A stretch of 64,000 bases of DNA from assembly GCF_024172085.1 (NCBI RefSeq), contig NZ_JAMZDZ010000001.1:6014001-6078000 (forward strand). Reading direction: 5' to 3'. Origin of the DNA: Hamadaea flava (lineage in GTDB: Bacteria > Actinomycetota > Actinomycetes > Mycobacteriales > Micromonosporaceae). Position numbers and translations under genes: made by a program. The notes beneath the pieces were generated by a model. It did not search any database. It worked only from the letters and a program-made list of their open reading frames with translations, and was not told the DNA's origin. Within the stretch, counting starts at the first letter, position 1. Each line of letters begins with the position of its first letter. This document shows, one piece after another, positions 5,303 through 63,476 of this stretch.

Positions 5303-5359
5303 CAGATCAGGGTTATGCATGCTTCCCGCGCTCGGGGAGGCATGCATAACCCTGATCTG
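5303..5359. repeat. GATCA-palindrome family, copy 1
   Basis: A perfect 20-bp stem runs from CAGATCAGGGTTATGCATGC (5303-5322) to 5340-5359, and the loop itself contains a TCCC/GGGGA stem. It lies 26 nt after the stop of the minus-strand gene ending at 5385. It shares the GATCAGGG...GCATGC core with seven other copies in this window. It probably acts as a terminator. Confidence 0.85.
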
Positions 5360-5384
5360 ACGGTGAAACGGGGGCGGTATGGCG

Positions 5385-5738
5385 TTAGGCGTGGCTGGAG
5401 CGGCGGCTCCGCCGCGGGTGCGTCTCCCGGTACGCGTAGAACGGCCGGGCCACCGCCGCGACGATGGCGACGCCGATGACGGCGACGGCGACCTGGATCG
5501 CCAGTTCCGCCCAGCTCCACGAGAAGTGCCAGTTCACCGAGTTCCAGTCGATCGCGGCGCGGGCGTCGTCGGAGATGCCCAGGTGCTTGGCCGCCCACGA
5601 GCCGGCGAGCGCGCCGCCGAAGCCGACCAGCCAGGTGGCCAGGATGCCGATGCTCTGCTTGCCCGGCAGCACCAGGCGAGCCAGCGTACCGACCACCAGG
5701 CCGATCAGGATGGCGCTGAGAACGTCGTCAATCCGCAT
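5385..5738 (-). CDS. GlsB/YeaQ/YmgE-family small membrane protein
   Basis: This is a 117-residue protein. The first helix region carries IGLVVGTLARLVLPGKQSIG, followed by LATWLVGFGGALAGSWAAKHLG. That is the two-helix pattern of the transglycosylase-associated (GlsB/YeaQ/YmgE) family, with an added third helix near the C-terminus (AIQVAVAVIGVAIVAAVARP). These are general-stress-associated inner membrane proteins. ATG 5738 (MRIDDVLSAILIGL) has TGGAG about 8 nt upstream. The longer frame to 5798 has no family-like residues before this Met. Confidence 0.85.
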   Translation of the reverse strand: MRIDDVLSAILIGLVVGTLARLVLPGKQSIGILATWLVGFGGALAGSWAAKHLGISDDARAAIDWNSVNWHFSWSWAELAIQVAVAVIGVAIVAAVARPFYAYRETHPRRSRRSSHA

Positions 5739-5865
5739 GTCGGTCGCTCCATTCCCTTCAGTCTGCGTACGTCCATTGCCGGATTGGCGGATCGTCAAAC
5801 CTCGACCCGTCCTGACCAGTGGTTACGGTCTCCCGCTCGACGGTGTGGTGATGCACAATGCGCGG

Positions 5866-6540
5866 ATGATCGAACCCGCGCCCGGTCCCCGGCTGGTCGA
5901 GCTGAACCACGTCATCGAGGCCGGCATGACCACGTATCCGGGGTTGCCGGGGCCGGAGATCGCGCCGTATCTGTCCCGCGAGGACTCGCGCGGCCATTAC
6001 GCGCCCGGCACCGAGTTCACCATCGACTGGCTGCATATCCTCAGCAATTCTGGCACCTATGTGGACAGTCCGTTCCACCGGTACGCGGGCGGCGCGGACC
6101 TGGCGGACCTGCCCCTGTCCTCGTTCGCCAACCTGCCGATCGTCGTGGTGACGTCGCGTACGGGGCGGGGCGTCGGGGTGGACGCGCTCCGGCAGGTCGA
6201 CGTCCGAGGCAAGGCGGTGCTGCTGCACACCGGGTGGGACCGGCACTTCGGGACGCCGGCGTACGGGGTGGACGCTCCCTTCCTCACCGAGGCGGGCGCG
6301 GAGTACCTCGTGGAGTCCGGCGTCAAGCTTGTCGGCATCGACTCGCTCAACATCGACGAGGTCACGCCGTTCGGCGCGCGCCCCTGCCATTCGCGGCTGC
6401 TCGCCGCCCACATCCCGATCATCGAGCACCTGACCGGGCTGGATCAGCTGCCGGCGACGGGCGCGAGGCTGCACGCCGCGCCGCTGCGTATCCGCGACTT
6501 CGGCACCATCGCCGTCCGGGCGTACGCTTTGGTCCCCTGA
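5866..6540 (+). CDS. Cyclase-family (kynurenine formamidase fold) hydrolase
   Basis: The 224-residue protein matches the PF04199 cyclase family: LVELNHVIEAGMTTYPGLPG at the N-terminus, the metal-site region SGTYVDSPFHRY (about residues 66-77), GKAVLLHTGWD, and GIDSLNIDE. The usual metal motif is HxGTHxDxPxH. Here the two outer and inner His positions before Asp read Ser-Gly-Thr-Tyr, so only the D-x-P-x-H half is intact; related actinobacterial proteins with this variant exist. It may hydrolyse an amide or lactone, but the substrate is unknown. ATG 5866 is preferred because CACAAT lies exactly 6 nt upstream and there is no Shine-Dalgarno; ATG 5851 is the alternative. Confidence 0.8.
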   Translation: MIEPAPGPRLVELNHVIEAGMTTYPGLPGPEIAPYLSREDSRGHYAPGTEFTIDWLHILSNSGTYVDSPFHRYAGGADLADLPLSSFANLPIVVVTSRTGRGVGVDALRQVDVRGKAVLLHTGWDRHFGTPAYGVDAPFLTEAGAEYLVESGVKLVGIDSLNIDEVTPFGARPCHSRLLAAHIPIIEHLTGLDQLPATGARLHAAPLRIRDFGTIAVRAYALVP

Positions 6541-6546
6541 ACAGCC

Positions 6547-6576
6547 GGAAGGCCGCGCGAATCCGCGCGGCCTTCC
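6547..6576. terminator. Bidirectional terminator hairpin
   Basis: GGAAGGCCGCGCG and CGCGCGGCCTTCC form a perfect 13-bp stem with a 4-nt loop, followed by GAGTTTTCG. It lies between the stops at 6540 (+) and 6596 (-). Confidence 0.8.
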
Positions 6577-6595
6577 GAGTTTTCGAGTGCGAACG

Positions 6596-7195
6596 TCACG
6601 CCGGGTCGGGCGTACGCCACAGCGCGAACGCGAGCCAGGCGCATCCGGCGAGCATCAGTACGCCGTGGCCGATGCGGACCGCTTCGCCGGTGAAGAACTG
6701 CGGGATGAACAGGGCGAACCCCGCGCCGAACAGCAACCCCGACAGCTTCGGCAGTACGCCTCCCCGCCACACCGCGACAGCGGCCCAGACCGCGCCGACA
6801 CCGAGCAGCAGCAGGCCCACGAAGAACGTCGCGACGGCGGCCGGGTGGTAGCGGATGCTGTCGGAGAGGTCGAGCAGGTCCAGCGACTGACCGTCCTTGA
6901 CCTTGCCCGCCAGCGTGTTGAGCGCGAAGTCCTCCGCGCCGTAGTAGGGCAGCGTCAAGCCCGCGCCGATCCACATGATGACGGCGGCGACCTTGTCGAC
7001 CCGGAAGAGCGCCAGCGGCACCAGGATGAAGCCGATCATCGCGAACAGGTGAGTCGCGACCCACCACGGCGATCCCATCGCATGGAGGGCTCCGGCGGCG
7101 GTGGACTCGTCGGCCCACGGGCGCAGGGCGGGGTAGAGGAGGAAGAGGACACCGGCCACGGCGAGCGCGACGGCGGCGAGGCGATTGCGGGACAT
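6596..7195 (-). CDS. Multi-pass membrane protein co-transcribed with TetR regulator
   Basis: The 199-residue protein has about six hydrophobic segments: LAAVALAVAGVLFLLYPALR, ATHLFAMIGFILVPLALF, AAVIMWIGAGLTLPYYG, FFVGLLLLGVGAVWAAVAV, LSGLLFGAGFALFIPQFF and GVLMLAGCAWLAFALW. No transport or enzyme motif is visible, so the function is unknown. Start ATG 7195 overlaps the TetR stop by one base (TGATG), so it is translated from the same message and is probably the target of that repressor. Confidence 0.75.
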   Translation of the reverse strand: MSRNRLAAVALAVAGVLFLLYPALRPWADESTAAGALHAMGSPWWVATHLFAMIGFILVPLALFRVDKVAAVIMWIGAGLTLPYYGAEDFALNTLAGKVKDGQSLDLLDLSDSIRYHPAAVATFFVGLLLLGVGAVWAAVAVWRGGVLPKLSGLLFGAGFALFIPQFFTGEAVRIGHGVLMLAGCAWLAFALWRTPDPA

Positions 7196-7770
7196 CAGGA
7201 CTCCTGAGGGGTGTGCGCGGAGGAAAGCGAGTTCAGAAACATCTGGATGAGGCGTTCGTAGGTTTCGTCGAGGCCCTGGGGCAGGCCGAAGCCGCCGGCC
7301 GACTCCAGGGAGGCGAAGCCGTGGGTGATCACCCGGGCGGCCCGCATGGCGTGCACGAGATCGGCGTCGGAGAGCTGCCACGGCCGCAACGCCGCTCCCA
7401 TCACTTCGAGGAGCCGCCGACCGGCCTCGGCGAATTCCGCCTGGTGCAACGGGTCGGCCGGCATCGCGGCATAGCGGGCGGGGTGGGCGACCACATAACC
7501 CCGGTACGCCCGCATGAGCGTCGCGACCGCGTCGGCCCCGCTGCGCCCCATGACGGCGGTCGCGAACTGGTCCGCCATCTCCCGCAGCACGCGTACGCCG
7601 ACGAGCGTGCGCAGATCCGCGAGGTTGCTGACGTGCTTGTAGAGCGACGGAGCGGCGACGCCACAGCGCTCGGCCACGGCGGCCAGCGTCAGCGCGTCCA
7701 GTCCACGCTCGTCGACCAGGGCGATCGCGGTGTCGACCACCCGGTCCGGGGTGAGCCCGGCCCTAGGCAT
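7195..7770 (-). CDS. TetR/AcrR-family regulator (WHG-type C-terminus)
   Basis: The 191-residue protein has an N-terminal helix-turn-helix (VVDTAIALVDERGLDALTLA, AAVAERCGVAAPSLYKHVSN). Its C-terminal domain contains YRGYVVAHPARYAAMP, typical of the TetR_C_33/WHG group. ATG 7770 (MPRAGLTPDRVV) is preferred over the Met three codons earlier. Its promoter region carries two matching 17-bp inverted repeats (7804-7841), so autoregulation of this gene and the downstream membrane protein is likely. The ligand is unknown. Confidence 0.9.
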   Translation of the reverse strand: MPRAGLTPDRVVDTAIALVDERGLDALTLAAVAERCGVAAPSLYKHVSNLADLRTLVGVRVLREMADQFATAVMGRSGADAVATLMRAYRGYVVAHPARYAAMPADPLHQAEFAEAGRRLLEVMGAALRPWQLSDADLVHAMRAARVITHGFASLESAGGFGLPQGLDETYERLIQMFLNSLSSAHTPQES

Positions 7771-7803
7771 CGCGACCACCGTCCCGAGCGGCGCCGGGCG
7801 CTT

Positions 7804-7841
7804 GGCTATCTCTCATAGCCTTAAAGCTACGACACGTAGCC
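7804..7841. promoter_or_regulatory. Two tandem TetR-type operators
   Basis: GGCTATCTCTCATAGCC (7804-7820) and, on the other strand, GGCTACGTGTCGTAGCT (7825-7841) are both 17-bp dyads with the form GGCTA-N7-TAGCY. They start 21 bp apart centre to centre (two turns) and lie 34-71 nt upstream of the TetR start, where a self-binding repressor would sit. Confidence 0.65.
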
Positions 7842-7916
7842 AACACTTGTCAACCGCCCAGGCAGCTTCGGCGGTGTCGGCCTGTCCGGCTGGTGGCCGC
7901 CCAGGAGGGGAGTAGG

Positions 7917-8909
7917 TTGGGCCGGGTGATCGTCGCCCGAGCCGCATCAGGCACGCTTCCGCACTTCCCCGACCTCGTAGCCCTCGCCGACGGGCCCCTG
8001 CTGTGCGCGTACCGGGAGAGCACCGGGCACGTGCGCGCCGACGGGCGGATCATGCTCGTCGAGTCCGGCGACCGGGGGCAGACCTGGTCCGAGCCCAGGG
8101 TCGTCGCCGACGGCGAACACGACGACCGGGATCCGAAACTCGTCCAGCTCCGGGACGGCACAGTCCTGCTGAGCTACTTCGTGCTCGACTGGCATCCGGA
8201 CGGCAAGTTCACCTGCCTCGGCACGCTGGTGATGCGGAGCGAGGACGGTGGGCGTACCTGGTCGGAGCCGGTGGTCGCCGGTGGGGACGACCTGCTCTGG
8301 GCGGTCTCCCACGGCGCGGCCGTCGAGCTGCCCGACGGCGACGTCCTGCTCCCGCTCTACGGCGTCGATCCCCGGCGGTCGACGGGCCTCGACAGCGCGC
8401 TCGCCGTCCGCAGTACCGACGGTGGGCGTACGTGGGCGGCGGAGACGGCAGTGCCGCTCGGGATCAGCGCCGACTTCCACTTCCGGGAGCCGACCCTGAC
8501 CGTGCTGCCGACCGGCGAGGTCGTCGCGTTGCTGCGTACGTCGGTGGAGCACGCCTATCTGGCCCGCTCGACGGACGGCGGCCGCACCTGGACCCCACCC
8601 GTGGAGACCGACCTCCCCGCGTCGTCGCACCACGTGCTGCTGCTCGCTGACGGAGCGCTGCTCGTCGCGTACGGCGACATCTCGAAGCGGTTCTCGCCTC
8701 GGCGCAGCACCGTCGCGCGGATCGTGACCGACCCCGCGGGCGAGTGGACCGGGCCGGACCTGCATCTGTACGACTCCGGCCACCCGGACCAGGCGAATCC
8801 GTCCAGTGTGGAGCTGGAGCCGGGCCGGTTCCTGACGGTGAGCTTCGACGTGCCGGACGCGACCGTCGTCTCCTTCACCAGCGACCGCGCCGCCTACGTC
8901 GCGTCGTGA
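7917..8909 (+). CDS. BNR-repeat sialidase-like protein, no signal peptide
   Basis: The 330-residue protein carries repeated Asp-box motifs: SGDRGQTWSEP, SEDGGRTWSEP, STDGGRTWAAE and STDGGRTWTPP, spread along a six-bladed propeller of the sialidase/neuraminidase fold. It lacks an N-terminal signal sequence, so it is probably cytoplasmic. Whether it hydrolyses sialic acid is not established by the repeats alone. TTG 7917 is chosen because AGGAGGGG (7903-7910) lies 6 nt before it; GTG 7926 is the alternative. Its TGA stop lies in the first copy of the degenerate repeat at 8907-9036. Confidence 0.8.
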   Translation: MGRVIVARAASGTLPHFPDLVALADGPLLCAYRESTGHVRADGRIMLVESGDRGQTWSEPRVVADGEHDDRDPKLVQLRDGTVLLSYFVLDWHPDGKFTCLGTLVMRSEDGGRTWSEPVVAGGDDLLWAVSHGAAVELPDGDVLLPLYGVDPRRSTGLDSALAVRSTDGGRTWAAETAVPLGISADFHFREPTLTVLPTGEVVALLRTSVEHAYLARSTDGGRTWTPPVETDLPASSHHVLLLADGALLVAYGDISKRFSPRRSTVARIVTDPAGEWTGPDLHLYDSGHPDQANPSSVELEPGRFLTVSFDVPDATVVSFTSDRAAYVAS

Positions 8910-9036
8910 CCGGCTCGACGCCGACGATCGTCATCCCGTTGACCGGCTAGACCCTGGATGAGATCGCCCCGAGTGTCACGCCTTGACCGGCTGGACCCCG
9001 GATGAGACGCCCCGAGCGTCACGCCTTGACCGGCTC
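8907..9036. repeat. Degenerate tandem repeat spanning the 3' ends of two convergent genes
   Basis: TGACCGGCT[C/A/G]GAC recurs at 8907, 8940, 8984 and 9027, with spacings of 33, 44 and 43 nt. The second and third units are alike for their whole length (GACCCYGGATGAGA...CGCCCCGAG...GTCACGCC). The last unit is the true coding end of the PHP gene and the first contains the stop of the sialidase-like gene. The extra units look like tandem duplication of the PHP gene tail. Confidence 0.75.
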
Positions 9037-9876
9037 GACGCCGGACGCGGCGTCGACGATGCGGTCGAGTGCCTCGGGCGCGGTCGTGTTGGCGCCGAGC
9101 CGGACCACCTTGTTCGCGCCGTGGTAGTCGCTCGATCCCGTGACGACCAAATCGAGGTCGGCGGCCAGTTCGCGCACGTGCGCGCGTTCGGCCGGGGTGT
9201 GGTCTTCGTGGTCGGCCTCGATGCCGAACAGGCCGGCCGTGGCGAGTTCCGCGATCAGCTCGTCCGGCACGATCGGGCCGCGCCGTGCGGCCAGCGGATG
9301 AGCGAAGACCGGGACCCCGCCCGCGCCGCGGATCAGCTTCAGCGCCGTGAAGACCTCGACGTCCTCCTTGGGTACGCGATACCGCGCGCCCAGCCACTGG
9401 GAAGCGAACGCCTCGGAGACCGTGCCCACCAGCCCGGCTCGGACGAGTGCCTGGGCGATGTGGGGGCGGCCGACGGTGCCGCCGGCGGCGAAGGCGCGGA
9501 TCTCCTCCCAGTCGATGTCGACGCCGTCTTCGCGTAGCAAGGTGACCATGCGTTCGGCGCGGGACTCGCGGGCTTGCTTGACTCGTGCCAGTTCGGCGGC
9601 GAACGCCGGTTCCGCCGGATCGAACAGGTACGCCAGCATGTGCAGCCCGACCGAGCGATCCGGGCCGAACCAGCGGCAGGACACCTCGGCGCCCCGGATC
9701 AGGGTGAGCCCGGGCGGCAACGCCTCCACCGCGGGCGCCCAGCCCGCCGTCGTGTCGTGGTCGGTCAGCCCGACGACGTCGAGACCGGCGGCTACGGCGT
9801 GCCGCACCAATTCGGTCGGAGTGTCGGTGCCGTCGCTGGCGGTGGAGTGCGTGTGGAGGTCGATCACGCCTCCCAT
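9019..9876 (-). CDS. PHP-domain phosphoesterase (RNase AM/TrpH-like)
   Basis: The 285-residue protein shows the metal-binding motifs of the PHP family in order: DLHTHSTASDG (about residue 6), GLTDHDT, IRGAEVS, VFAHPLA, IEADHEDHTP and GSSDYHG. This set matches the YciV/TrpH group, whose characterised members act as 3'-phosphate or 5'-3' exonuclease-type phosphoesterases on nucleotides or RNA. ATG 9876 (MGGVIDLHTHS) is the family N-terminus; the upstream in-frame sequence to 10227 is not coding. The gene ends in a duplicated tail region (8907-9036). Confidence 0.9.
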   Translation of the reverse strand: MGGVIDLHTHSTASDGTDTPTELVRHAVAAGLDVVGLTDHDTTAGWAPAVEALPPGLTLIRGAEVSCRWFGPDRSVGLHMLAYLFDPAEPAFAAELARVKQARESRAERMVTLLREDGVDIDWEEIRAFAAGGTVGRPHIAQALVRAGLVGTVSEAFASQWLGARYRVPKEDVEVFTALKLIRGAGGVPVFAHPLAARRGPIVPDELIAELATAGLFGIEADHEDHTPAERAHVRELAADLDLVVTGSSDYHGANKVVRLGANTTAPEALDRIVDAASGVEPVKA

Positions 9877-9937
9877 TCTGTCGGCTTTCCGGCGATCTTG
9901 GTGGCCGGACGGCCGATCGGCGGAGCCAGCGAAAATC

Positions 9938-9967
9938 TTGACAACATCGATGTATGTGTCGCAGCAT
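9938..9967 (+). promoter_or_regulatory. Candidate -35/-10 promoter of the GH6 gene
   Basis: TTGACA (9938-9943) is an exact -35 consensus. A weak -10 (CAGCAT, 9962-9967) follows after an 18-nt spacer. Confidence 0.4.
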
Positions 9968-9974
9968 GGCGCAC

Positions 9975-9988
9975 TGGAATCGTTTCCA
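9975..9988. promoter_or_regulatory. Candidate operator of the GH6 gene
   Basis: TGGAATCGTTTCCA has 5-bp arms (TGGAA/TTCCA) and lies just downstream of the likely promoter, 18 nt before the start. It differs from the GAGCGCTC operators of the neighbouring LacI/GH16/GT4 genes, so a different repressor may act here. Confidence 0.4.
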
Positions 9989-10006
9989 CATCCTGGGGAG
10001 GAACTC

Positions 10007-11407
10007 TTGCGACGCATGCCCCGCCTGCTGGCCGCGGCCGTCCTCGCACTGCCGCTTGCCCTGTTCGCCACCCCTGACGCGTACGCCGCCACCGAGCTGA
10101 TCACCAACGGCACGTTCACCTCGTCCACCACCCCGTGGTGGAGCACCAGCAACACCCCGTTGAGCGTCGACGGCGGACGGCTGAAAGCCGCCGTTCCGGG
10201 CGGCACCGCGAACCGCTGGGACGCCATGTTCGGGGAGAAGTCGCCAGCCCTGACACTGCACCAGAACCGCAGCTACACGTTGTCGTTCGACGCCTCCGCC
10301 ACGGCCACCCGGGCAGTCCGCACGACCGTGCAGCTCAACGCCGACCCGTACCCGGCCACGCTCGACCAGCTGTTCACTGTGGACACCACCGCGCGGCACT
10401 TCAGCTGGACCTTCACCGGGACGCTGGAGACCGCGAACGGCGAGATCACCTTCCAGCTCGGCGGGCTCACCGGCGGGGCGTACACCTTCTGGATCGACAA
10501 CGTGTCCCTCGTGGACAACACCGCCGGCAGCGGCTCGCCGCTCGACCTGACCAGCGGGTTCTACGTCGATCCCGACTCCAACCCGGCGGTGTGGGTCCGG
10601 AACAACGGCGGGGACTCCCGAACCGCCCAGATCAACTCGGCCATCGCCACCAAGCCCATGGCCCGCTGGTTCGGCGCGTGGAGCGGCGACATCGGCACCG
10701 CCGTCGGCTCGTTCATCGGGGCAGCCGACGCCGCCGACAAGCTTCCGGTCCTGGTCGCGTACAACATCCCGGGGCGCGATGCCTGCGGTGGTCACTCCGG
10801 CGGCGGCGCCGGCTCGGCCGACGCCTACAAGACCTGGATCGCCGCGTTCGCCACGGCCATCGGCAGCCGCCCGGCCGTCGTGATCATCGAGCCCGACTCG
10901 CTCGCCGACTTCAACTGCATGGACACGGCGGCGATCGCCACCCGGAATGACATGATCTTGTACGCGACGCGGCAGTTCCACGACAAGGCGCCCAACACCT
11001 GGGCGTACCTGGACGCCGGGAACCCGGGCTGGGTGGCGGCCGGGACGATGGCCGGTCGGCTGAGCGCCGCCGGGCTCGCCAACATCCGGGGCTTCTCGAT
11101 CAACGTCTCCAACTACTACACGACCAGCGACGACGTGGCGTACGGGACGGCGGTCAACACCAGCCTCGGCAGCGCGGCGAAGCCGTTCGTCGTCGACACC
11201 AGCCGCAACGGGAACGGGACCAACGGCGAGTGGTGCAACCCGGCTGGGCGGAAACTCGGCGTACCGGCGCAGGTCGGCGGGGGTGCGGAGATGCTGCTCT
11301 GGCTGAAGGTGCCCGGTGACTCCGACGGCGACTGCGGGATCGGCGCCGGCATCCCGGCCGGTCAGTTCAGCCCGGACCTGGCCGTCCACCTCATCACCGG
11401 CTCCTGA
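10007..11407 (+). CDS. Secreted glycoside hydrolase family 6 cellulase with N-terminal carbohydrate-binding-like domain
   Basis: The 466-residue precursor starts with a Sec signal (RRMPRLLAAAVLALPLALFA, cleaved near DAYA-ATEL). A beta-sandwich CBM-like domain follows (about residues 28-165, ELITNGTFTSSTTPWW). The GH6 catalytic domain then begins at SGFYVDPDSNPAVWVR. Visible GH6 landmarks are LVAYNIPGRDACGGHSGGG, VVIIEPDSLADF (catalytic acid Asp), AYLDAGNPGWV, GFSINVSNYY, VVDTSRNGNG and LLWLKVPGDSDGDC. It cleaves cellulose or beta-1,4-glucan outside the cell. TTG 10007 is preferred since GGAGGA (9997-10002) is 4 nt upstream; ATG 10016 is possible. Confidence 0.9.
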   Translation: MRRMPRLLAAAVLALPLALFATPDAYAATELITNGTFTSSTTPWWSTSNTPLSVDGGRLKAAVPGGTANRWDAMFGEKSPALTLHQNRSYTLSFDASATATRAVRTTVQLNADPYPATLDQLFTVDTTARHFSWTFTGTLETANGEITFQLGGLTGGAYTFWIDNVSLVDNTAGSGSPLDLTSGFYVDPDSNPAVWVRNNGGDSRTAQINSAIATKPMARWFGAWSGDIGTAVGSFIGAADAADKLPVLVAYNIPGRDACGGHSGGGAGSADAYKTWIAAFATAIGSRPAVVIIEPDSLADFNCMDTAAIATRNDMILYATRQFHDKAPNTWAYLDAGNPGWVAAGTMAGRLSAAGLANIRGFSINVSNYYTTSDDVAYGTAVNTSLGSAAKPFVVDTSRNGNGTNGEWCNPAGRKLGVPAQVGGGAEMLLWLKVPGDSDGDCGIGAGIPAGQFSPDLAVHLITGS

Positions 11408-11421
11408 CCGATCGTTCCGTG

Positions 11422-11478
11422 CAGATCAGGGATGTGCAGGCCATCTGGGCCTGAGATGGCCTGCACATCCCTGATCTG
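11422..11478. repeat. GATCA-palindrome family, copy 2
   Basis: A perfect 25-bp stem starts CAGATCAGGGATGTGCAGGC (11422-) and pairs with 11454-11478 around a 7-nt loop. It starts 15 nt after the stop of the GH6 gene and precedes the channel gene on the same strand. Confidence 0.9.
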
Positions 11479-13817: not shown

Positions 13818-13821
13818 GGGG

Positions 13822-19835: not shown

Positions 19836-19894
19836 GCAGATCACGGATATGCATGCCATCTCGGGCCTGGGAAGCATGCGTATCCGTGATCTGC
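19836..19894. repeat. GATCA-palindrome family, copy 3
   Basis: A 21-bp stem starts GCAGATCACGGATATGCATG (19836-) and pairs with 19874-19894; the only mismatch is T opposite G, a wobble pair in RNA. It lies 20 nt after the stop of the minus-strand gene ending at 19914. Confidence 0.85.
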
Positions 19895-29200: not shown

Positions 29201-30419
29201 GTCGCAGCTCGTCGCCGACGACGGCGTGGTGGCGGTCCTGGTCGGGCAGACCGGCGTGGTCGGCTCGCACGACGGCGGCAAGACCTGGAACACCCTGTAC
29301 GCCAAGTCGTTCGGCCCGTACGAGCTGCGCCAGTCCGGTGGCGACCTCTACGTCATCACCTTCATCGGGGACGGCCTGATCGGGCACGACCACGGGCGTA
29401 CCTGGGAGACGATCGAACCGCCGTCGGGCGCGGCCGTCGACCGGGACTTCGACCACTGGGGACAGTCGACCGTCGTCACCAACACTGCCGGGGTGTACGC
29501 CCGGACCGGCTCCGGCTACCAGCGGCTGGGCGTGCAGTCGGCGTCCGTCACCGAGCTGGCCGTCGCCGGGACCGAGCTGATCGCCGGGACCAGCAACGGG
29601 ATCTACCGGACCGCGACGTCGGCGACCACGCCCGAATGGGGTGCGGCCGACGGTGAGGGATACGTCGGGGCGGGCGTACCGCTCGTCGCGGTCTCCCCGC
29701 AGGACCCGAAGGTCGTGTGGAAGGTCCGGACCGACGCCTTCGGCGGCTTCGACGTCTCGGTCAGCCGGGACGGCGGGGAGATCTGGGAGCAGAAGGCCCA
29801 CCAGAACGGCATCCCGCTCGCACTGCTCGTGCACCCGGCCGACCCCGACCGGATCTCGATCAGCTGGGGCCGCATCGACGCCGTGGCCACGTTCAGCACG
29901 GTTGACGACGGTCAAACCTGGAAGAACCTCTACCAGGACCGGTACGCCACGGCGCTGGCCGGCGATCCGGCGAAGCCGAACCGCATGTGGTTCGGTACGC
30001 CCGAGGGTCTCTACCGCTCCGACGACGGGGGCGTGACCTCGACGAAGGTGCTCGACGGGCAGATCAACGCGATCTCGTTCGACGGTCGCCGGATGGTCGT
30101 CGGCGGTGCACAGCTCTGGTCGAGCACCGACGGCGGGCGTACGTTCCGCGCCGGCGACGCCGGACCGCTGGACCTGTGGGTCTCCGACATCGTCCAGGTC
30201 GGCGGCGTCAGCTATGCGGCGACTTCGAGCTACTCGGCGTACGGGGTGCTCAAGGGCGGTCGCGGGGTGCTGCGGAGCACTGATGGTGGGCGTACGTGGC
30301 ACAACGTGTCCACCGCGCTGCAGAACCTCGATGTGCTGTCGCTGGCGGTCAGCGCCGACGGCCAGACGCTGTTCGCCGGTACGCAGAACGGCGGCGTCCA
30401 CCGGCTGTCGCTCCGCTGA
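26256..30419 (+). CDS. Large secreted S8 subtilase with BNR propeller tail
   Basis: The 1387-residue precursor has a signal peptide (AVAVSAVLAFGGLSAYAPTG), an I9-type propeptide, and a subtilisin domain with the full triad: AVIDTGVDYSHPDLGG (Asp near 172), DDNGHGTHVAGII (His near 213) and SGSSMAAPHVAGA (Ser near 546). A PA insert lies at about 380-470. Ig-like segments follow at about 610-790. From about 800 to the end there are repeated Asp boxes (SGDQGTTWK, TDDRGKTWD, SWNGGDSWT, SHDGGKTWN, STDGGRTF, STDGGRTWH), forming one or two beta-propellers like those of sortilin or photosystem assembly factor. It probably degrades protein outside the cell. Confidence 0.92.
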   Translation: MRSTPPRSLAVAVSAVLAFGGLSAYAPTGSAAAPDPLRRVIVTLDGAAAATAAPAGSLRNARGAGADQVGQARRALSDRQSSFLDTARGKGVHPKAERRFTLLVNAVALTVPASEVATLSKVPGVTGVYDNLRVRAYTDVSVPLIGATDVWQQPDPTGTPATGTGVTVAVIDTGVDYSHPDLGGGFGPGHKVVGGYDFVNDDADPMDDNGHGTHVAGIIAGKAAQPGGITGVAPGAQLMAYKVMNDQGFGETEDIVAAIEAASDPANPHRADVINMSLGGYADGLDPLGLAASAASAAGIVVVAAAGNDGPGAMSVGSPAAADGVIAVGASVSNLRLPVIYRDGVKVQTYRGQISANPSASPVTAPVVSIGFGTPEEIAAAGDLHGKIALLNGYVAHDFNDLWQEQIDLAKDLEKRGALALLGGQDPTGGPVLAATSGVPATASTGKITARPGVTESGDLYRMDSLVVLGMDETQYPELARLLAAGPLSLQIRGEDATDRIASFSSRGPSLRWGLKPDIVAPGYEIRSTVPTSLFGPGQYRLSGSSMAAPHVAGAAALLRQLHPDQPASELSASLIGTAAPLKESPTTAGAGRLNVAAAARTMLSATPSTLSYGLADLASGTVGGTRTVALRNGSSKPVAVRLAASSRDVSVKPDRVTIPASGTATVTVTLKAKRPTADTEISGFVTATAATGKITIPYLLVVHPLVVQTSPDPSDGHTTVWVQSWAGLSGPPVITVDRPRGRSYTVTTRPNPAGGYIATLDEPADGAYAVTAQATAVSGQRLVGWGGFEVTPESTRGAAWQPIGPYSGGGFLATGPSGTGILATEDTTSPWVSGDQGTTWKQSARLPISGAAGLLEPVADANNADRMWYPVNDPMTGGRILRTDDRGKTWDALPLPANGWIEQLVSDAQTQVLVALVGDSRLQVSWNGGDSWTAYDTGVADPVTKIGLSQGNLYLGTASGVWKRPGIVDAAVRVYSNSRYVSQLVADDGVVAVLVGQTGVVGSHDGGKTWNTLYAKSFGPYELRQSGGDLYVITFIGDGLIGHDHGRTWETIEPPSGAAVDRDFDHWGQSTVVTNTAGVYARTGSGYQRLGVQSASVTELAVAGTELIAGTSNGIYRTATSATTPEWGAADGEGYVGAGVPLVAVSPQDPKVVWKVRTDAFGGFDVSVSRDGGEIWEQKAHQNGIPLALLVHPADPDRISISWGRIDAVATFSTVDDGQTWKNLYQDRYATALAGDPAKPNRMWFGTPEGLYRSDDGGVTSTKVLDGQINAISFDGRRMVVGGAQLWSSTDGGRTFRAGDAGPLDLWVSDIVQVGGVSYAATSSYSAYGVLKGGRGVLRSTDGGRTWHNVSTALQNLDVLSLAVSADGQTLFAGTQNGGVHRLSLR

Positions 30420-30440: not shown

Positions 30441-30495
30441 GGATCAGGGATGTGCATGCCTTACCGAGCCTAGGAAGCATGCACATCCCTGATCC
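30441..30495. repeat. GATCA-palindrome family, copy 4
   Basis: A perfect 19-bp stem GGATCAGGGATGTGCATGC (30441-30459) pairs with 30477-30495. It lies between the convergent stops at 30419 (+) and 30508 (-), as a bidirectional terminator would. Confidence 0.85.
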
Positions 30496-51578: not shown

Positions 51579-52016
51579 GTGGACCCAGTGGATTGGCATA
51601 TTCTGGACGAACTGCAGCGTGACGCCCGGCTCTCGTTCAACGAACTGTCCCGGCGGGTGAACCTCTCCTCGCCCGCCGTCGCCGAGCGCGTACGCCGTCT
51701 GCAGGAGACCGGGGTGATCACCGGCTACCACGCCCACGTCGACCTCGCCACGGCCGGACGGCAGGCGACGGCGCTCATCCGGATGCACTGCTACGGGCCG
51801 ACCTGCCTGCTCCGGGAACCCGCCGTCGCCGACTGGCCCGAGGTACTCCAGATGCATCGGGTCAGCGGCGACGCCTGCTGCGCGCTCAAGGTCTCCGTGG
51901 CGTCGATGGCCGACCTCGAACACTTCATCGACCGGCTCGCCGGTTACGGGCGCCCCTCCACCGCGATGATCCTGTCCAGCCCGATCACCTGGCGACCGGT
52001 CACGCCGCTCCCTTGA
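51579..52016 (+). CDS. Lrp/AsnC-family regulator of the kynurenine genes (KynR-like)
   Basis: The 145-residue protein has an AsnC helix-turn-helix (VDWHILDELQRDARLSFNEL, RRVNLSSPAVAERVRRLQET) and an RAM-type ligand domain (RQATALIRMHCYGPTCLLRE). The location between kynA and kynU parallels KynR, a kynurenine-responsive AsnC-type regulator in Pseudomonas and Burkholderia. By analogy it may activate both genes; this is an inference. GTG 51579 fits the leaderless promoter. Confidence 0.88.
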   Translation: MDPVDWHILDELQRDARLSFNELSRRVNLSSPAVAERVRRLQETGVITGYHAHVDLATAGRQATALIRMHCYGPTCLLREPAVADWPEVLQMHRVSGDACCALKVSVASMADLEHFIDRLAGYGRPSTAMILSSPITWRPVTPLP

Positions 52017-52020: not shown

Positions 52021-52081
52021 TGCAGATCACGGTTCCGCAGGCATCCTCGGGCGAAGGATGCCTGCGTAACCGTGATCTGCA
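52021..52081. repeat. GATCA-palindrome family, copy 5
   Basis: A 27-bp stem starts TGCAGATCACGGTTCCGCAG (52021-) and pairs with 52055-52081, with one C/T mismatch. It lies between the convergent stops of the Lrp gene (52016) and kynU (52097). Confidence 0.88.
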
Positions 52082-53397: not shown

Positions 53398-53458
53398 TGC
53401 AGATCACGGATGTGCATGCCACCTTGAGCGCCGGCGGCCTGCGTAACCGTGATCTGCA
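53398..53458. repeat. GATCA-palindrome family, copy 6 (mismatched arms)
   Basis: The left arm reads TGCAGATCACGGATGTGCAT and so resembles copies 3 and 4. The right arm, reversed, reads TGCAGATCACGGTTACGCAG and resembles copy 5. The outer part of the stem (TGCAGATCACGG) pairs and the inner part does not. It lies 9 nt after the stop of the minus-strand gene ending at 53467. Confidence 0.8.
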
Positions 53459-58485: not shown

Positions 58486-58520
58486 TTTCAACTCCGGGGG
58501 TCCGGTGGGCCCAACCCGTT

Positions 58521-58546
58521 TAGTTTGCCTGAAGCTAATATTTAGC
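58521..58546. promoter_or_regulatory. AT-rich TTAG/CTAA palindromes in the RND/MarR divergent region
   Basis: GCTAATATTTAGC (58534-58546) is a perfect 13-bp palindrome. An upstream TTAG (58521-58524) forms a wider dyad with CTAA at 58535-58538. MarR proteins usually bind such AT-rich dyads. Confidence 0.6.
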
Positions 58547-58606
58547 GTTTCACCGGGTTACTGTTACGCTGCTGTTGCGCGGGGGCCGACCAGCACAGGA
58601 GTAGCG

Positions 58607-59077
58607 GTGACCAGCAAAGACGCGGCGATCGCGCGGATCATGGCCGGTCAGCGGCAGTTCCAGCTGGCGATGGCGCGAGATCGAACCAATCCGTTCTTCG
58701 CGGTCAACCTGACGATGTCCCAGCTCAAGATCCTCTTCGCGTTGCGGCTGCACGGCGGCCAAGGCGGGCACGAGCTGGCCCAGAAGATGGGGGTCAGCCC
58801 CGCCACCATGACGGGCATCGTCGACCGCCTCGTCGCCGGGCGCTACGTCAGCCGCCGCGAAGACCCCCACGACCGGCGCGTACGCCTCGTCGAGCTGACC
58901 GAGCGCGGCACCACGATCGTCGACGACATCATGACCGTCGGCGAGGAGCACTCCCGCCGCATCCTGGCCCGCCTCAGCGTCGACGAACTCAGCGTGGTCG
59001 CCGACGCGATGGACATCCTCGGCCGGGCCCTCGTCGAGGACGCCACCGCTGCGGAGAGCGAACGGGACACTGCATGA
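58607..59077 (+). CDS. MarR-family regulator, divergent from the RND pump
   Basis: The 156-residue protein has a MarR winged helix: FAVNLTMSQLKILFALRLHG, GHELAQKMGVSPATMTGIVD, RLVAGRYVSRREDPHDRRVR and LVELTERGTTIVDDIM. It very likely represses the RND pump gene and itself. GTG 58607 has AGGAG 5 nt upstream. Its TGA stop is embedded in the left arm of palindrome copy 7. Confidence 0.9.
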   Translation: MTSKDAAIARIMAGQRQFQLAMARDRTNPFFAVNLTMSQLKILFALRLHGGQGGHELAQKMGVSPATMTGIVDRLVAGRYVSRREDPHDRRVRLVELTERGTTIVDDIMTVGEEHSRRILARLSVDELSVVADAMDILGRALVEDATAAESERDTA

Positions 59078-59139
59078 TCAGGGTCAATTCGACGCTCCCA
59101 TAGCGATCCCATAGCGACATGGGAATGACCCTGATCATG
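59073..59139. repeat. GATCA-palindrome family, copy 7
   Basis: CATGATCAGGGTCA (59073-59086) pairs with TGACCCTGATCATG (59126-59139), a perfect 14-bp outer stem. The loop contains a direct repeat of CCCATAGCGA (59097 and 59108). The MarR stop codon lies inside the left arm. Confidence 0.75.
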
Positions 59140-59206
59140 GTCAGCGACGATCGGGGTGTCGGGCGATTCGGCGCGGGATCGGGCGGCTGGGTGTGAGCAT
59201 GATCCA

Positions 59207-60442
59207 GTGACCTCGTCAACCCTGTTCACGCTGCTGTTGATCACGATAGCGGCGGTCGCTTCGCCGATCGTGGTGGATCGGCTGTCCCGGTGGATCGTGA
59301 TCCCGGCCATCGTCGTCGAGCTGATCCTCGGGGTCCTGGTCGGGCCGTACGTGCTGCACTGGGCGCAGGTCGACGACATCATCAGCGCGCTGTCCAGTCT
59401 CGGCCTGGCCGTGCTCATGTTCATGGCCGGCTACGAGATCGACTTCGGCCGGCTTCGGGGGCGGCCGTTGACCCTCGCGGTCGTCGGCTGGCTGTGCTCG
59501 CTGGCGCTCGGGCTGGGGCTGGTCGCGCTGCGTACCGGGTTCAGTTTGAAGACGGTCGTGATCGGGCTCGCCCTGACCACCACCGCGCTCGGCACGCTGC
59601 TGCCGATTCTGCGGGATCGGGGCATGCTCGGTACGCCGTTCGGCAACCGGGTGATGGCGGTGGGCGCGATCGGGGAGTTCGCGCCGATCGTCGCCATCTC
59701 GGTCGTGCTGACGACCGACAATCCGGTGCACTCGATGATCCTGCTCGTGGTCTTCGCCGTCGTGGCGATCGTGGCCGCCCACCTGGCCCGGCAGCCTCCG
59801 TCGCCGCGGATGTCGCGGCTGGTGATCCGAACTCTGCATACGTCGGCCCAGCTGGCGATCCGGCTCATTCTGCTGGTCCTGGTCACGATGGTCTGGCTGG
59901 CCTATCGGTTCGAGCTGGACACCCTGCTCGGCTCGTTCGCGGCCGGCATCGTCGTACGCCTCGCGATGCGGCCCGCGTCCGAGCACATGACCCAACAGGT
60001 CGAGGCCAAGCTGGACGCGATCGGCTTCGGTTTCCTGATCCCGATCTTCTTCGTGGTGAGCGGGATCAACCTGAACCTCGGCGCGCTCTCCTCGGTCGAG
60101 GGGCTGCTGGCGACCGCGCTTTTCGTGGTGGCGTTGCTGGTCGTCCGGGGTGGCCCGATCTTCGTGCTGCACCGGCGGGACCTGCCCGGCGTACGCGATC
60201 GGCTGTCGCTGGCCTTGTTCGGGGCGTCGGCGCTGCCGTTGATCGTGGTCATCACCACCATCGGCACGCAGGACGGCGTACTGACGACTCCGCTCGACGC
60301 GTCGCTGGTGGCGGCGGGTGCGCTGTCCATTCTGATCTTCCCGCAGGTCGCGATGCGTCTCCTCCGCAGCGGTACGCCGGAAACCGGCGCGTCCACGAAG
60401 GACACGCCGGTCACCCTGCCCGCCGAGCCGGAGGCTCTCTAG
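59207..60442 (+). CDS. CPA-family cation/proton antiporter
   Basis: The 411-residue protein has about 11 to 12 hydrophobic helices: LFTLLLITIAAVASPIVVDR, IVIPAIVVELILGVLVGPYV, ALSSLGLAVLMFMAGYEIDF, GAIGEFAPIVAISVVLTTDN and so on. The helix pair ...GEFAPI... and ...FFVVSGINLNLG... is typical of Na+/H+ exchangers of the CPA2/KefC type. There is no cytoplasmic RCK domain. GTG 59207 (VTSSTLFTLLLITI) is preferred because the first helix starts there; no clear ribosome binding site is present. Confidence 0.85.
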   Translation: MTSSTLFTLLLITIAAVASPIVVDRLSRWIVIPAIVVELILGVLVGPYVLHWAQVDDIISALSSLGLAVLMFMAGYEIDFGRLRGRPLTLAVVGWLCSLALGLGLVALRTGFSLKTVVIGLALTTTALGTLLPILRDRGMLGTPFGNRVMAVGAIGEFAPIVAISVVLTTDNPVHSMILLVVFAVVAIVAAHLARQPPSPRMSRLVIRTLHTSAQLAIRLILLVLVTMVWLAYRFELDTLLGSFAAGIVVRLAMRPASEHMTQQVEAKLDAIGFGFLIPIFFVVSGINLNLGALSSVEGLLATALFVVALLVVRGGPIFVLHRRDLPGVRDRLSLALFGASALPLIVVITTIGTQDGVLTTPLDASLVAAGALSILIFPQVAMRLLRSGTPETGASTKDTPVTLPAEPEAL

Positions 60443-60456
60443 CTCGCCGGAAGCCG

Positions 60457-62508
60457 CTACCGGATCAGGTCGTAGACGGTGGTGCCGCCGACGGTCTGCG
60501 CGGTGAAGTTCTCCGCCACCCAGCTCGCGATCTGCTGCGCCGAGTTGCTGCCGCCGTTCGACATGCCGCCGAATCCGCTGCTGCCGAGGAAGTAGTGGAC
60601 CTTCTTCTGCTCGACGAGCTGCTGGAAGTCCGCCAGCGAGATCGACGGGTCGCTGCCGTTGAAGCCGCCCAGGCTCATCACCGGTTCGCCGCTGCCGAGC
60701 TGGTAGCCCGCCGCGTTCTGCGAGCCCACCGCCGCTCCGGCCCAGGCGTACTGGTCGGCGTCGGTCCGCAGCAGCTTGACCAGGTCGCTGTTCGGGGTCG
60801 ACGCGGAGAGCAGACCGCCTGCGCCGCCGCCTCCGCCCATCCGGCCGCCGCCGTCGGAACGCGTGCCGGTACCCGGGAACCCGTTCTGGCCGTTGCCCGG
60901 CTGGGTCGCTCCGTTCTGCGTACCCATATTGGGCGGAGCTTGCATGCCCCCGTTGCCGAAGCCGCCCCGCTGACCGCCACCGCCCATCCGGCCGCCGCCG
61001 AAGCCCGAGCCTTGCACGGACGGACCGGCCGTGGGAATCGAGCCGGTGTGCGCGGTCGCGGCAGTGTCCAGCGCGTAGGCCGCGGGGCCCGCCAGGCCGG
61101 TCGCGATGCTCGCGACCGCGACCACAGTGGCCACTCGGCGCCACCGCAACCAGGGCAACGCGAGGAGCGCGGCGGCCGCGAGCACGCCTACCACGACCAC
61201 ACTGGTACGCAGCCAGGGCACGAAGTCGGCGCTGCGACCGAGCAGCACGCTCGACCAGACGGCGGTGATCGCCAGGGCGACCGCCAGGATCGAGCGGGCC
61301 ACGATGTGGGCCCGGTGCTGCCAGAGCGAGACGGCCCCGATGCCGATGAGCGCGCCGATCGCGGGCGCCAGCGCCACCGTGTAGTACGCGTGGAAGATGC
61401 CGGCCATGAAGCTGAACGTGCCGGCGGTGACCAGCAGCCAGCCGCCCCAGAGGATCAGCCCGGCCCGCATCCGGGAGGTACGCGCGGCGCGGGCGCTCAA
61501 CGCCAGCCCGCCGACCAGGAAGATCAGCGCGGCGGGCAGCAACCAGGCGACCTGGCCGCCGATCTCGCCGTCGAACAGGCGGGTGAGCCCGGTGGAGCCC
61601 CACATGCCGCCGTTGCCGCCGCCTCCGCCGCCGACGCTGCCGACCTCGTCGCCGGTCAGCCGGCCGAAGCCGTTGTAGCCGAGGGTCAGTTCCAGGATGC
61701 TGTTGGACTGCGAGCCGCCGATGTACGGGCGGGACGAGGCGGGCCACAGCGACACGATCGCGATCCACCAGCCGGCGCCGGCGATCATCGCGCCGAGCGC
61801 GGCCAGCAGCTGCCAGATCCGCTTCCAGAAGCCGACCGGGGCCGCGATCAGGTAGACCAGGCCGAACGCCGGAACGACCAGGAGTGCTTGCAGCATCTTG
61901 GCCAGGTACGCGAAGCCGACGAGCCCACCCGCCAGCAACAGCCACTTCGTCTTGCCCTGCTCGACCGCGCGGGTCACGGCGTACGCGCCCGCCACGAGCA
62001 GCAACACCAGCAGCGCGTCGGGGTTGTTGAACCGGAACATCAGCACGGCGACCGGGGTCAACGCCATCACGCCACCCGCGAGCAGCCCGGCCGCCGGACC
62101 GAACCAGCGGCGTACGGCGGCGTAGAGCAGGCCGACGGCGGCCACTCCTTCGAGCGCCTGCGGAACGAGGATGCTCCACGAGTTGACGCCGAAGATGCGC
62201 GCCGAGAGTGACATCGCCCACAGCGACGCCGGGGTCTTGTCCACTGTGATGAAGTTCGACGAGTCGAACGAGCCGAAGAACATCGCCTTCCAGCTCTGCG
62301 AGCCGGCCTGCGCCGCGGCCGAGTAGTACGCGTTGGCCCAGCCGGACTTGCCCAGCCCCCAGATGTAGAGGACGCCGGTCGCGACCAGGAGGGCCAGCAG
62401 CGCGGGACGCTCCCATCTCCGGCGGTTCGGCCCCGCCGGCGTTGCGGCCGTCGCGGGTTCCAGAGCGGTGACAGGCGTGTCCTGGACGCGGTCTTCTGCG
62501 ATGGTCAT
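60457..62508 (-). CDS. PMT/ArnT-like membrane glycosyltransferase with Gly-rich linker
   Basis: The 683-residue protein has the GT39/ArnT-type membrane core: a first-loop FITVDKTPASLWAMSLSARI (the DK motif region), and about eleven helices through residue ~480. A Gly/Gln/Asn-rich linker follows at about 498-560 (for example GFGGGRMGGGGQRGGFGNGG). A C-terminal soluble part ends with FTAQTVGGTTVYDLIR. Actinobacterial homologues move sugars from lipid-linked donors to surface acceptors; here the acceptor is unknown. ATG 62508 is preferred (MTIAEDRVQDTPVTALEPAT). Confidence 0.88.
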   Translation of the reverse strand: MTIAEDRVQDTPVTALEPATAATPAGPNRRRWERPALLALLVATGVLYIWGLGKSGWANAYYSAAAQAGSQSWKAMFFGSFDSSNFITVDKTPASLWAMSLSARIFGVNSWSILVPQALEGVAAVGLLYAAVRRWFGPAAGLLAGGVMALTPVAVLMFRFNNPDALLVLLLVAGAYAVTRAVEQGKTKWLLLAGGLVGFAYLAKMLQALLVVPAFGLVYLIAAPVGFWKRIWQLLAALGAMIAGAGWWIAIVSLWPASSRPYIGGSQSNSILELTLGYNGFGRLTGDEVGSVGGGGGGNGGMWGSTGLTRLFDGEIGGQVAWLLPAALIFLVGGLALSARAARTSRMRAGLILWGGWLLVTAGTFSFMAGIFHAYYTVALAPAIGALIGIGAVSLWQHRAHIVARSILAVALAITAVWSSVLLGRSADFVPWLRTSVVVVGVLAAAALLALPWLRWRRVATVVAVASIATGLAGPAAYALDTAATAHTGSIPTAGPSVQGSGFGGGRMGGGGQRGGFGNGGMQAPPNMGTQNGATQPGNGQNGFPGTGTRSDGGGRMGGGGGAGGLLSASTPNSDLVKLLRTDADQYAWAGAAVGSQNAAGYQLGSGEPVMSLGGFNGSDPSISLADFQQLVEQKKVHYFLGSSGFGGMSNGGSNSAQQIASWVAENFTAQTVGGTTVYDLIR

Positions 62509-62641
62509 GCCCCCAGGCTGGGCTGATCGGATGGACGTCTCGTCGGACCGGTCTGTGTGGCGCCTGTGAAACTCTGGAGATTTATGGAAAAGAAACCTTA
62601 CTGATGCGAACGACTCGCGCCCATCACCGCGTTCTGTCGAC

Positions 62642-63400
62642 ATGCGTAAATCTGTGCTGATCTTGTCCTTGCTGGTGGCGCTGGCGGGCTGCGGGAACGC
62701 CGGTACGCCGTCCTCATCCCCGTCGGCGTCGGACCCGAGCGCGGCGGCCCGGGAGATGCGGTTGCAGTCGGCCAACGCCGTCTGCGTCGCCGACCAGAAC
62801 CGGGCCCGCCTCGTGACCTACCCGAGCGTGGGCGGCGAACTGGGCGCGGGCTACCTCAACGGCACCGGCGACACCGCAGTCGTCCTGTTGCACCAGGCCG
62901 GCGGCGGGCTGTGCCAATGGCTCGGCTACGCCGACGCGTACGCCGCCAAGGGGATGCGCGGCTTCGCGGTCGACATCCGGAACGAGTCCCGGGTCGACGA
63001 CACCGTCGCGGCGGTCGCGTACCTGCGGTCGACGGGCGTACGGAAGGTCTTCCTCGTCGGCGCGTCGATGGGCGGCACGACGGCGTTGGCCGCGGCCGCG
63101 TCGATCCAGCCCCCGGTCGACGGCATCGTCAGCCTCTCGGGCCCGGCGATCTACGCCGGGGCGGATGCCGCCTCGGCCGTGAAGAAGCTGGCGATGCCGG
63201 TCGTGTTCGCCGCCGGTACCAACGACGGGAACTTCGCCACCGACGCTCAGTCGCTGTATCAGGACTGCGCTTCGAAGCAGAAGAAGCTGATCCTGCTGCC
63301 CGCCAGCGATCACGGCGTACTGCTGATGTCGCGGGGCATGGGCGACTTCGTGCTCGCCTTCGTCGCCGACCCCGTCGCCGCCCTCTCGCTCACCGTCTAA
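62642..63400 (+). CDS. Alpha/beta-hydrolase lipoprotein
   Basis: The 252-residue precursor has a lipoprotein signal (SVLILSLLVALAGCGNAGTP, lipobox LAGC). The alpha/beta-hydrolase domain has VVLLHQAGGGLCQWLGYADA and the nucleophile elbow VFLVGASMGGTTALAAAASI. An acid loop is VFAAGTNDGNF, and a catalytic His appears in LLPASDHGVLLM. It is anchored on the outer face of the membrane and probably acts as an esterase or peptidase. It starts at ATG 62642; no clear ribosome binding site is seen. Confidence 0.88.
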   Translation: MRKSVLILSLLVALAGCGNAGTPSSSPSASDPSAAAREMRLQSANAVCVADQNRARLVTYPSVGGELGAGYLNGTGDTAVVLLHQAGGGLCQWLGYADAYAAKGMRGFAVDIRNESRVDDTVAAVAYLRSTGVRKVFLVGASMGGTTALAAAASIQPPVDGIVSLSGPAIYAGADAASAVKKLAMPVVFAAGTNDGNFATDAQSLYQDCASKQKKLILLPASDHGVLLMSRGMGDFVLAFVADPVAALSLTV

Positions 63401-63403
63401 CGG

Positions 63404-63476
63404 TGATCATTGCGTCAGCCATGCTGCTTCACCTGGCGAAATGTCCGCCGGAACAGCATGGCTGACGCAATGATCA
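63404..63476. repeat. GATCA-palindrome family, copy 8 (divergent)
   Basis: TGATCATTGCGTCAGCCATG (63404-) begins a perfect 23-bp stem that pairs with 63454-63476. It lies 4 nt after the hydrolase stop (63400). The far arm's end supplies the TGA stop of the convergent gene at 63474. It shares GATCA at its tips but not the GG...GCATGC core. Confidence 0.75.

What the first reader, a model, noticed from the sequence alone, without database searches (positions are those of the whole stretch)
5303..63476. A dispersed family of eight long palindromes, each just after a stop codon, with a shared covarying core
Copies lie at 5303-5359, 11422-11478, 19836-19894, 30441-30495, 52021-52081, 53398-53458, 59073-59139 and 63404-63476. 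Seven share GATCA-S-GG near each tip, and six also share W-T-N-Y-GCA-K-GC further in. Where a copy differs from another on one arm, it usually differs to match on the other, so pairing is kept. Stems reach 25 to 27 bp. All start within a few to about 30 nt of a stop codon, and two contain the stop inside an arm. This looks like a replicating palindromic element (REP- or MITE-like) that has become the terminator of choice, or a DNA structure with a role of its own. Ordinary terminators nearby (17531, 41601, 55221) do not share the sequence.
Basis: seen in the sequence. Interest (0 to 1): 0.82.

Follow-up and report, generated by a model that had tools for sequence, protein, structure and literature searches.

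The report
Interchangeable palindromes at Hamadaea gene ends
The chromosome of this soil actinobacterium carries hundreds of copies of a rigidly built 53-base palindrome placed just after genes; relatives tend to keep a palindrome at the same gene ends but sometimes one of a different sequence type, which looks like a new, actinobacterial kind of repeated gene-end hairpin.

Summary
The palindromes are real. Six of eight (5303, 11422, 19836, 30441, 52021, 53398) are one family, A; 59073 and 63404 belong to other families. An exact 53-nt frame, GATCASGGNT-N33-ANCCSTGATC, occurs 237 times in the 8.86-Mb chromosome, 237 and 235 times in two sister Hamadaea genomes, twice in a third, and 1, 1 and 2 times in three genomes of another genus; the other 293 of 300 family genomes have none, and the reversed control is 0. 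Copies lie just after stop codons, in tandem or convergent gaps, seldom divergent ones. A second interior, E, uses the same tips and length. The new point: over 127 orthologous gene ends occupancy is conserved (15 both, 4 and 11 single, 97 neither; odds ratio 33), while the occupant can change: 6 of 32 co-occupied sites differ in type (one pair dropped). No Y1/RAYT transposase hit in the genus, no GTAG/CGTC tag, no clear target duplication, no U-tract. Best reading: a REP/MITE-like repeat superfamily that serves as a bidirectional transcript-end hairpin, mover unknown. Termination and mobility are inferred, not shown.

The parts
5303..5359 (.). Family A palindrome (53-nt core 5305-5357), 25 nt beyond the stop (5385) of a minus-strand gene; tandem gap. 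Same family in G003, family B in G002.
11422..11478 (.). Family A palindrome, 14 nt after the stop (11407) of a plus-strand gene; tandem gap. Family A in G003; G002 lacks the gene upstream.
19836..19894 (.). Family A palindrome, 19 nt beyond the stop (19914) of a minus-strand gene. Family A in G002, family E in G003.
30441..30495 (.). Family A palindrome between convergent genes (stops at 30419 and 30508). No orthologous stretch was fetched.
52021..52081 (.). Family A palindrome between convergent genes (stops at 52016 and 52097). Family B in G002, family E in G003, no palindrome in G001.
53398..53458 (.). Family A palindrome, 8 nt beyond the stop (53467) of a minus-strand gene; tandem gap. 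Family A in G002 and G003.
59073..59139 (.). Palindrome of another family (D: CATGATCAGGGTCAATTCGACG), stop codon of the plus-strand gene (59075-59077) inside the left arm. Family C palindromes in G003; other sequence in G002.
63404..63476 (.). Palindrome of another family (B: TGATCATTGCGTCAGCCATGCTG) between convergent genes; stop of the minus-strand gene (63474-63476) inside the right arm. Family B in G002, family E in G003.

Best explanation
A superfamily of non-coding palindromic repeats, rigidly 53 nt between its outer GATC ends (tips GATCASGGNT, interchangeable middle arms A, E and rarer ones, often an AATCTTGG/CCAAGATT centre), has spread over the chromosome of Hamadaea and lives as the 3'-end hairpin of transcripts. 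In RNA either strand folds into a hairpin (median -41 kcal/mol with its extension) right after the stop codon; it most likely stops RNA polymerase or stops trimming exonucleases and so fixes the 3' end, in both directions between convergent genes. Because a gene end needs some such hairpin, the place is kept while the occupant is replaced over time by another copy or another palindrome family. Shown: copy number, rigid length, gene-end position, conserved occupancy, changes of type at orthologous gene ends, arm covariation in A, absence of a U-tract. Inferred: transcript-end function, mobilisation by an unidentified enzyme acting in trans, and replacement as the way types change.
For: Half-sites 473 vs 20 for the reversed control; exact 53-nt frame 237 in own genome, control 0; GATC-to-GATC length 53 nt in 106 of 115 A and 29 of 35 E copies. 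Family A (98 scored copies in 1.784 Mb): 54 tandem, 37 convergent, 5 divergent, 1 in a gene, 1 at an edge, median 16 nt from a stop, against 527 tandem, 175 convergent, 272 divergent gaps of 30 nt or more. In tandem gaps 67 of 70 elements lie in the stop-proximal half. Occupancy conserved over 127 orthologous tandem and convergent gaps: 15/4/11/97, odds ratio 33, p 1.7e-9. Type changes: 6 of 32 co-occupied pairs (one search lists 7 of 33; I drop 6025424, where G002 lacks the upstream gene). Mixed elements with one E and one A arm: 3 seen. Arms of A covary.
Against: No transcript data. No U-tract: T is 15% of the next 9 nt, background level, against 27% after ordinary hairpins. E arms do not covary beyond permutation (85.4% vs 84.7%, sd 0.8). 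No candidate transposase, tag or clear target duplication. Eight strong copies lie inside predicted genes (some may be gene-prediction errors). Type changes could be loss followed by independent gain: flanks next to the element are alignable at 1 of 6 changed sites against 13 of 26 unchanged ones. Copies at orthologous sites of type A are hardly more alike than random A copies (0.83 vs 0.79, sd 0.105, n = 8 pairs), which fits replacement but also saturated point change.
Confidence: 0.6

Rival explanations
1. Ordinary intrinsic terminators that look alike by convergence: selection for GC-rich hairpins after stop codons gives similar palindromes.
For: Position and hairpin energy fit terminators; ordinary, sequence-unrelated hairpins occupy the same kind of gap (121 palindromes outside the families scored).
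Against: Shared 18-nt arms, fixed 53-nt length including the loop, hundreds of copies in three genomes and none in 293 of 300 family genomes. Also no U-tract.
Confidence: 0.04
2. A protein-binding DNA site (nucleoid, segregation or uptake protein) with two half-sites in a fixed 53-bp geometry, kept at gene ends only because genes and promoters exclude it elsewhere.
For: Fixed distance between the tips, shared by A and E; tips nearly invariant; GATC tips recur in unrelated palindrome families.
Against: Strong bias to the stop-proximal part of tandem gaps and against divergent gaps; changes of the whole middle arms; single half-sites are rare (13 of 279 good half-sites outside a 53-nt element, most of these in longer or mixed elements), unlike DNA uptake signals.
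Confidence: 0.2
3. A selfish REP/MITE-like repeat without a function, found at gene ends only because insertion elsewhere is selected against.
For: Copy number, presence/absence differences between species (11 G003-only and 4 own-only gaps), a second repeat inserted into some E loops.
Against: In tandem gaps it avoids the start-proximal half although that is intergenic too (67 of 70 stop-proximal; promoter avoidance could explain part of this); occupancy is conserved between species whose spacers hardly align; arms of A keep pairing.
Confidence: 0.16

Closest known systems
REP sequences (repetitive extragenic palindromes; GTAG and CGTC super-families of Di Nocera et al. 2013, PMC3733652: abstract and passages read)
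   Same: High-copy short palindromes in intergenic space, mostly between unidirectional and convergent genes, downstream of coding regions, species- or genus-specific families, several families in one genome.
   Different: Longer (53-61 nt against 20-40), no GTAG or CGTC tag, no RAYT-type transposase hit, rigid length with interchangeable interior; that paper has no mention of Actinobacteria in its main text (word count 0).
MITEs (bacterial miniature inverted-repeat elements such as RUP, NEMIS, ERIC; named in passages of PMC3733652)
   Same: Non-coding dispersed inverted repeats that can supply RNA hairpins.
   Different: Shorter than the 70-300 bp given there, no clear target duplication, no parent insertion sequence found (not searched beyond Y1).
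Paired DNA uptake signals used as terminators (Kingsford et al. 2007, PMC1852404: outline seen; details recalled)
   Same: A genome-wide repeated word arranged as an inverted pair at gene ends.
   Different: Here single half-sites are rare and there is no U-tract; competence was not examined.
Actinobacterial intrinsic terminators with little or no U-tract (Streptomyces Term-seq, PMC12207403: passages read)
   Same: Long stable hairpins after genes, few U residues.
   Different: Those are individual sequences; here one repeated sequence family does it, with even fewer T (15% of the next 9 nt).

Membership tests
REP (GTAG/CGTC super-families) | Small palindrome of 20-40 bp in high copy | tested here: not met
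   High copy yes (237 exact copies) but 53 nt tip to tip in 106 of 115 A copies
REP (GTAG/CGTC super-families) | Unpaired GTAG or CGTC tag at one end | tested here: not met
   GTAG at 6 and CGTC at 20 of 274 flanks, below shuffled 17.8 and 34.1
REP (GTAG/CGTC super-families) | Associated RAYT (Y1) transposase, for GTAG REPs | tested here: not met
   PF01797: 0 of 4 genomes of the genus, control positive in 5 of 14; two of the genomes are incomplete drafts
REP (GTAG/CGTC super-families) | Intergenic, between unidirectional and convergent genes | tested here: met
   family A 91 of 98 tandem or convergent
MITE | Target-site duplication flanking the element | tested here: inconclusive
   excesses only at offsets explained by the self-complementary TGCA extension
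MITE | Cognate transposase recognising the same ends | not tested
   only Y1 transposases were searched
Canonical intrinsic terminator | Stable GC-rich hairpin shortly after the stop codon | tested here: met
   median energy -41.1 against -33.1 for 73 ordinary hairpins; median 16 nt from a stop
Canonical intrinsic terminator | U-tract after the hairpin | tested here: not met
   at least 4 T in the next 6 nt: 1.1% of 178 flanks, ordinary hairpins 8.0% of 87
Canonical intrinsic terminator | Transcripts end there | not testable with these tools
   no RNA data
DNA uptake signal | Many single copies of the word besides the inverted pairs | tested here: not met
   13 of 279 half-sites (up to 1 mismatch) outside a 53-nt element in 1.784 Mb

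The most novel reading that the evidence does not exclude
Gene ends in Hamadaea are fixed slots for a modular hairpin: outer tips, centre and total length (53 nt) are conserved while the paired middle arms are exchanged as blocks between copies by ectopic recombination or template switching at the shared tips, passing through mixed A/E intermediates, so that the chromosome recombines its transcript-end hairpins without a transposase.
Probability: 0.2. Interest if true: 0.8.

Novelty: new variant of a known kind. Interest (0 to 1): 0.55.

Why it matters
High-copy palindromes at gene ends are best known from Proteobacteria, where movement is tied to RAYT transposases. Here is an abundant system in a high-GC actinobacterial genus with no such transposase found, with a fixed length, and with occupants that change while the place stays. 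If borne out, it separates 'a gene end needs a hairpin' from 'this hairpin', gives a natural series of exchanged 3'-end hairpins for testing termination without a U-tract, and asks what enzyme or repair process swaps them.

Tried and rejected
Rejected: chance; convergence of unrelated terminators; DNA uptake signal with single copies; Y1/RAYT-driven REP. Rfam: 0 matches at gathering threshold in the window. Quasipalindrome correction as the main source of covariation: at six own/G002 sites with clear common descent I read by hand two two-sided changes and about eight one-sided ones, so paired change is not dominant there; this is a hand reading, not a computed count.

Led nowhere: meant to count the g4 variant, used a wrong spacer length (17 instead of 19) and says nothing; one search used a wrong Pfam accession (an unrelated nuclease family; its control was also empty) and says nothing; one search stopped with a script error and was redone; the script labels type E as xx (types corrected). 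Paper searches without a report of these repeats: (one search returned none).

Dropped rows: one AA element near a block end (116 to 115); the pair 6025424/G002, because G002 lacks the upstream gene, which lowers 7 of 33 to 6 of 32; sites with more than one element in a gap were left out. 12 of 20 in-gene hits have 3-5 mismatches and look like chance matches.

Full report
What is there. The eight palindromes are at the given coordinates. Seven are among the nine longest of 41 inverted-repeat pairs of the window; 59073 is not in the 25 listed. Six carry GATCASGGNTNYGCAKGC on both arms without mismatch and form family A. 59073 and 63404 have other arms. Rfam has nothing here at gathering threshold.

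Where it comes from. The window is 6,014,001-6,078,000 of a single 8,864,410-base contig. An exact pattern of a common family A copy hit 12 stretches in the named genome collection, all from two Hamadaea MAGs (9 from Bin2.24, 3 from Bin8.36).

How many and how widespread. Half-sites with up to 2 mismatches: 473 in the own genome against 20 for the reversed control. A covariance model of the six copies finds at least 150 strand matches in the own genome, the cap of scored candidates. In 41 genomes (own plus 40 relatives) it rings in 6: own, G002 and G003 at or near the cap, G001 28 weak matches, and 1 and 2 weak matches in two genomes of the order; none in the 21 other genera of the family sampled. 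The sharpest test is an exact 53-nt frame, GATCASGGNT-N33-ANCCSTGATC: of 300 genomes of the family, own 237, G002 237, G003 235, G001 2, three genomes of one other genus 1, 1 and 2, and 293 none; the reversed control is 0 in each. The copies in G001 and in the other genus keep tips and length but have other interiors.

Anatomy. In 1.784 Mb of own sequence (63 blocks, mostly chosen around copies, so not a random sample) there are 116 A/A pairs of half-sites, 35 E/E, 2 E/A mixtures and 18 pairs with the tip only; in 0.4 Mb of G003 12 A/A, 17 E/E and 1 A/E. From GATC to GATC, 106 of 115 A copies are 53 nt and 7 are 52; 29 of 35 E copies are 53, 2 are 52 and 4 are 91. E shares the tip GATCASGGNT and differs in the middle arm (GGTCGAATC instead of GCATGC). 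The rigid length includes the loop, which a terminator would not need. A arms covary (91.1% against 83.5%, sd 0.6%, maximum 85.0% in 1000 permutations); E arms do not (85.4% against 84.7%, sd 0.8%).

Position. With a home-made gene finder, 98 scored family A palindromes fall 54 tandem, 37 convergent, 5 divergent, 1 in a gene and 1 at an edge, median 16 nt from a stop codon; the 974 gaps of 30 nt or more are 527 tandem, 175 convergent and 272 divergent. The 28 scored E palindromes are 14 convergent, 11 tandem, none divergent, 2 in genes, 1 edge. In tandem gaps 67 of 70 elements lie in the stop-proximal half. Of 161 elements found with a looser frame, 20 lie in predicted genes, of which 12 are weak matches and 8 strong. 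The looser frame gives 1 hit in the reversed 1.784 Mb.

Is it a terminator? Hairpins are strong (median -41.1 kcal/mol, ordinary hairpins -33.1, n 73), but there is no U-tract: T is 14.7% of the next 9 nt (178 flanks) against 27.2% after 87 ordinary GATC-less hairpins. In Streptomyces the mapped terminators have 3-4 U in the first 10 nt and the longest, most stable hairpins (PMC12207403, passages). So the position and fold fit a transcript-end hairpin; the mode of stopping is open.

Same place, different occupant. In the window, orthologous stretches were available for seven sites. 52021: A here, B in G002, E in G003, nothing in G001. 5303: A, A in G003, B in G002. 19836: A, A in G002, E in G003. 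63404: B, B in G002, E in G003. 53398: A in all three, none in G001. 59073: D here, C in G003, other sequence in G002. 11422: A here and in G003; the E element of G002 near there follows another gene, as G002 lacks the upstream gene. So 5 of 7 sites hold another palindrome family in at least one relative.

A wider test used 400 kb of own chromosome and the syntenic contigs of G003: 274 gaps between orthologous neighbours (301 reciprocal pairs, mean 91% protein identity). Counting 53-nt elements, tandem and convergent gaps with at least 30 nt in one species give 15 occupied in both, 4 in own only, 11 in G003 only, 97 in neither (odds ratio 33, p 1.7e-9). Divergent gaps: 1/1/1/47. Among co-occupied sites with one element each, 33 pairs (17 with G003, 16 with G002) give 7 of different type; leaving out 6025424 this is 6 of 32. 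These 32 are not a random sample for G002, whose contigs were picked for holding elements. Orthologous A copies are hardly more alike than random A copies (0.83 against 0.79, sd 0.105, n 8 pairs).

How do occupants change? Sequence next to the element is alignable at 13 of 26 unchanged sites but only 1 of 6 changed ones, which favours replacement of the spacer or loss and new gain over conversion inside the element. One site (6999553) has a conserved left flank, tip and centre with both middle arms changed, and three elements have one E and one A arm (906800, 6932452, and G003 C56:117050), which is what in-place exchange would leave. Both routes stay open.

Mover. PF01797 (Y1 transposases, which include RAYTs) gives no hit in 4 of 4 genomes of the genus while its control rings in 5 of 14. 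Of 274 flanks 6 have GTAG and 20 CGTC within 14 nt, fewer than shuffled flanks (17.8, 34.1); direct repeats exceed permutation only at the self-complementary TGCA extension. Other transposase families were not searched.

Verdict. I file it as a new variant of a known kind: a genus-specific, fixed-length, modular palindrome superfamily whose places are conserved better than its sequences. None of eight paper searches listed a report of it; subscription journals are mostly not held.

Noticed in passing
own chromosome 5252970, 5526242, 6751473, 6970334, 8098348 and others; G002, G003: A second repeat of about 42 nt (core GGGGAGCCTCTYGGGCGAGCCGCCAGGAGTGC): 34 copies in the own genome, 16 in G002, 22 in G003 (up to 3 mismatches), 0 in G001 and 22 other genomes, reversed control 0. 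It sits in the loop of some E palindromes, making them 91 nt long, and elsewhere inside genes.
   Followed up: partly
L090, about 16650 (own 7628649): The same 42-nt repeat lies in the open reading frame of an argB-like gene (VVKYGGNAMVSGGEPLGRAARSAVG...; name by recall), apparently adding about a dozen residues in frame.
   Followed up: partly
own and G003 intergenic regions, e.g. L026 2650-2728, L074 5421-5487: Further palindrome families with GATC tips: arrays of GATCGTCGGCNGCCGACGATC (C), TTGATCATGGAGTTA (G type), CATGATCAGCGGAAGCTTCG (F). 151 of 222 strong palindromes in tandem or convergent gaps contain GATC (the sample is enriched for family A).
   Followed up: no
own chromosome 1.45-2.36 Mb: No family A site in the lists (both capped or partial) over about 0.9 Mb; three control stretches there hold one E element and two weak matches.
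   Followed up: no
own 4244396 and 4246093 (L050): Two family A-like elements inside predicted 1,692-nt genes, the second also present in G002; possibly in-frame linkers of transporter genes, not examined.
   Followed up: no
G264, G289, G186 (another genus of the family): Four 53-nt palindromes with the same tips and length but interior ATCGAGTGG; my count of this variant failed through a wrong spacer.
   Followed up: partly
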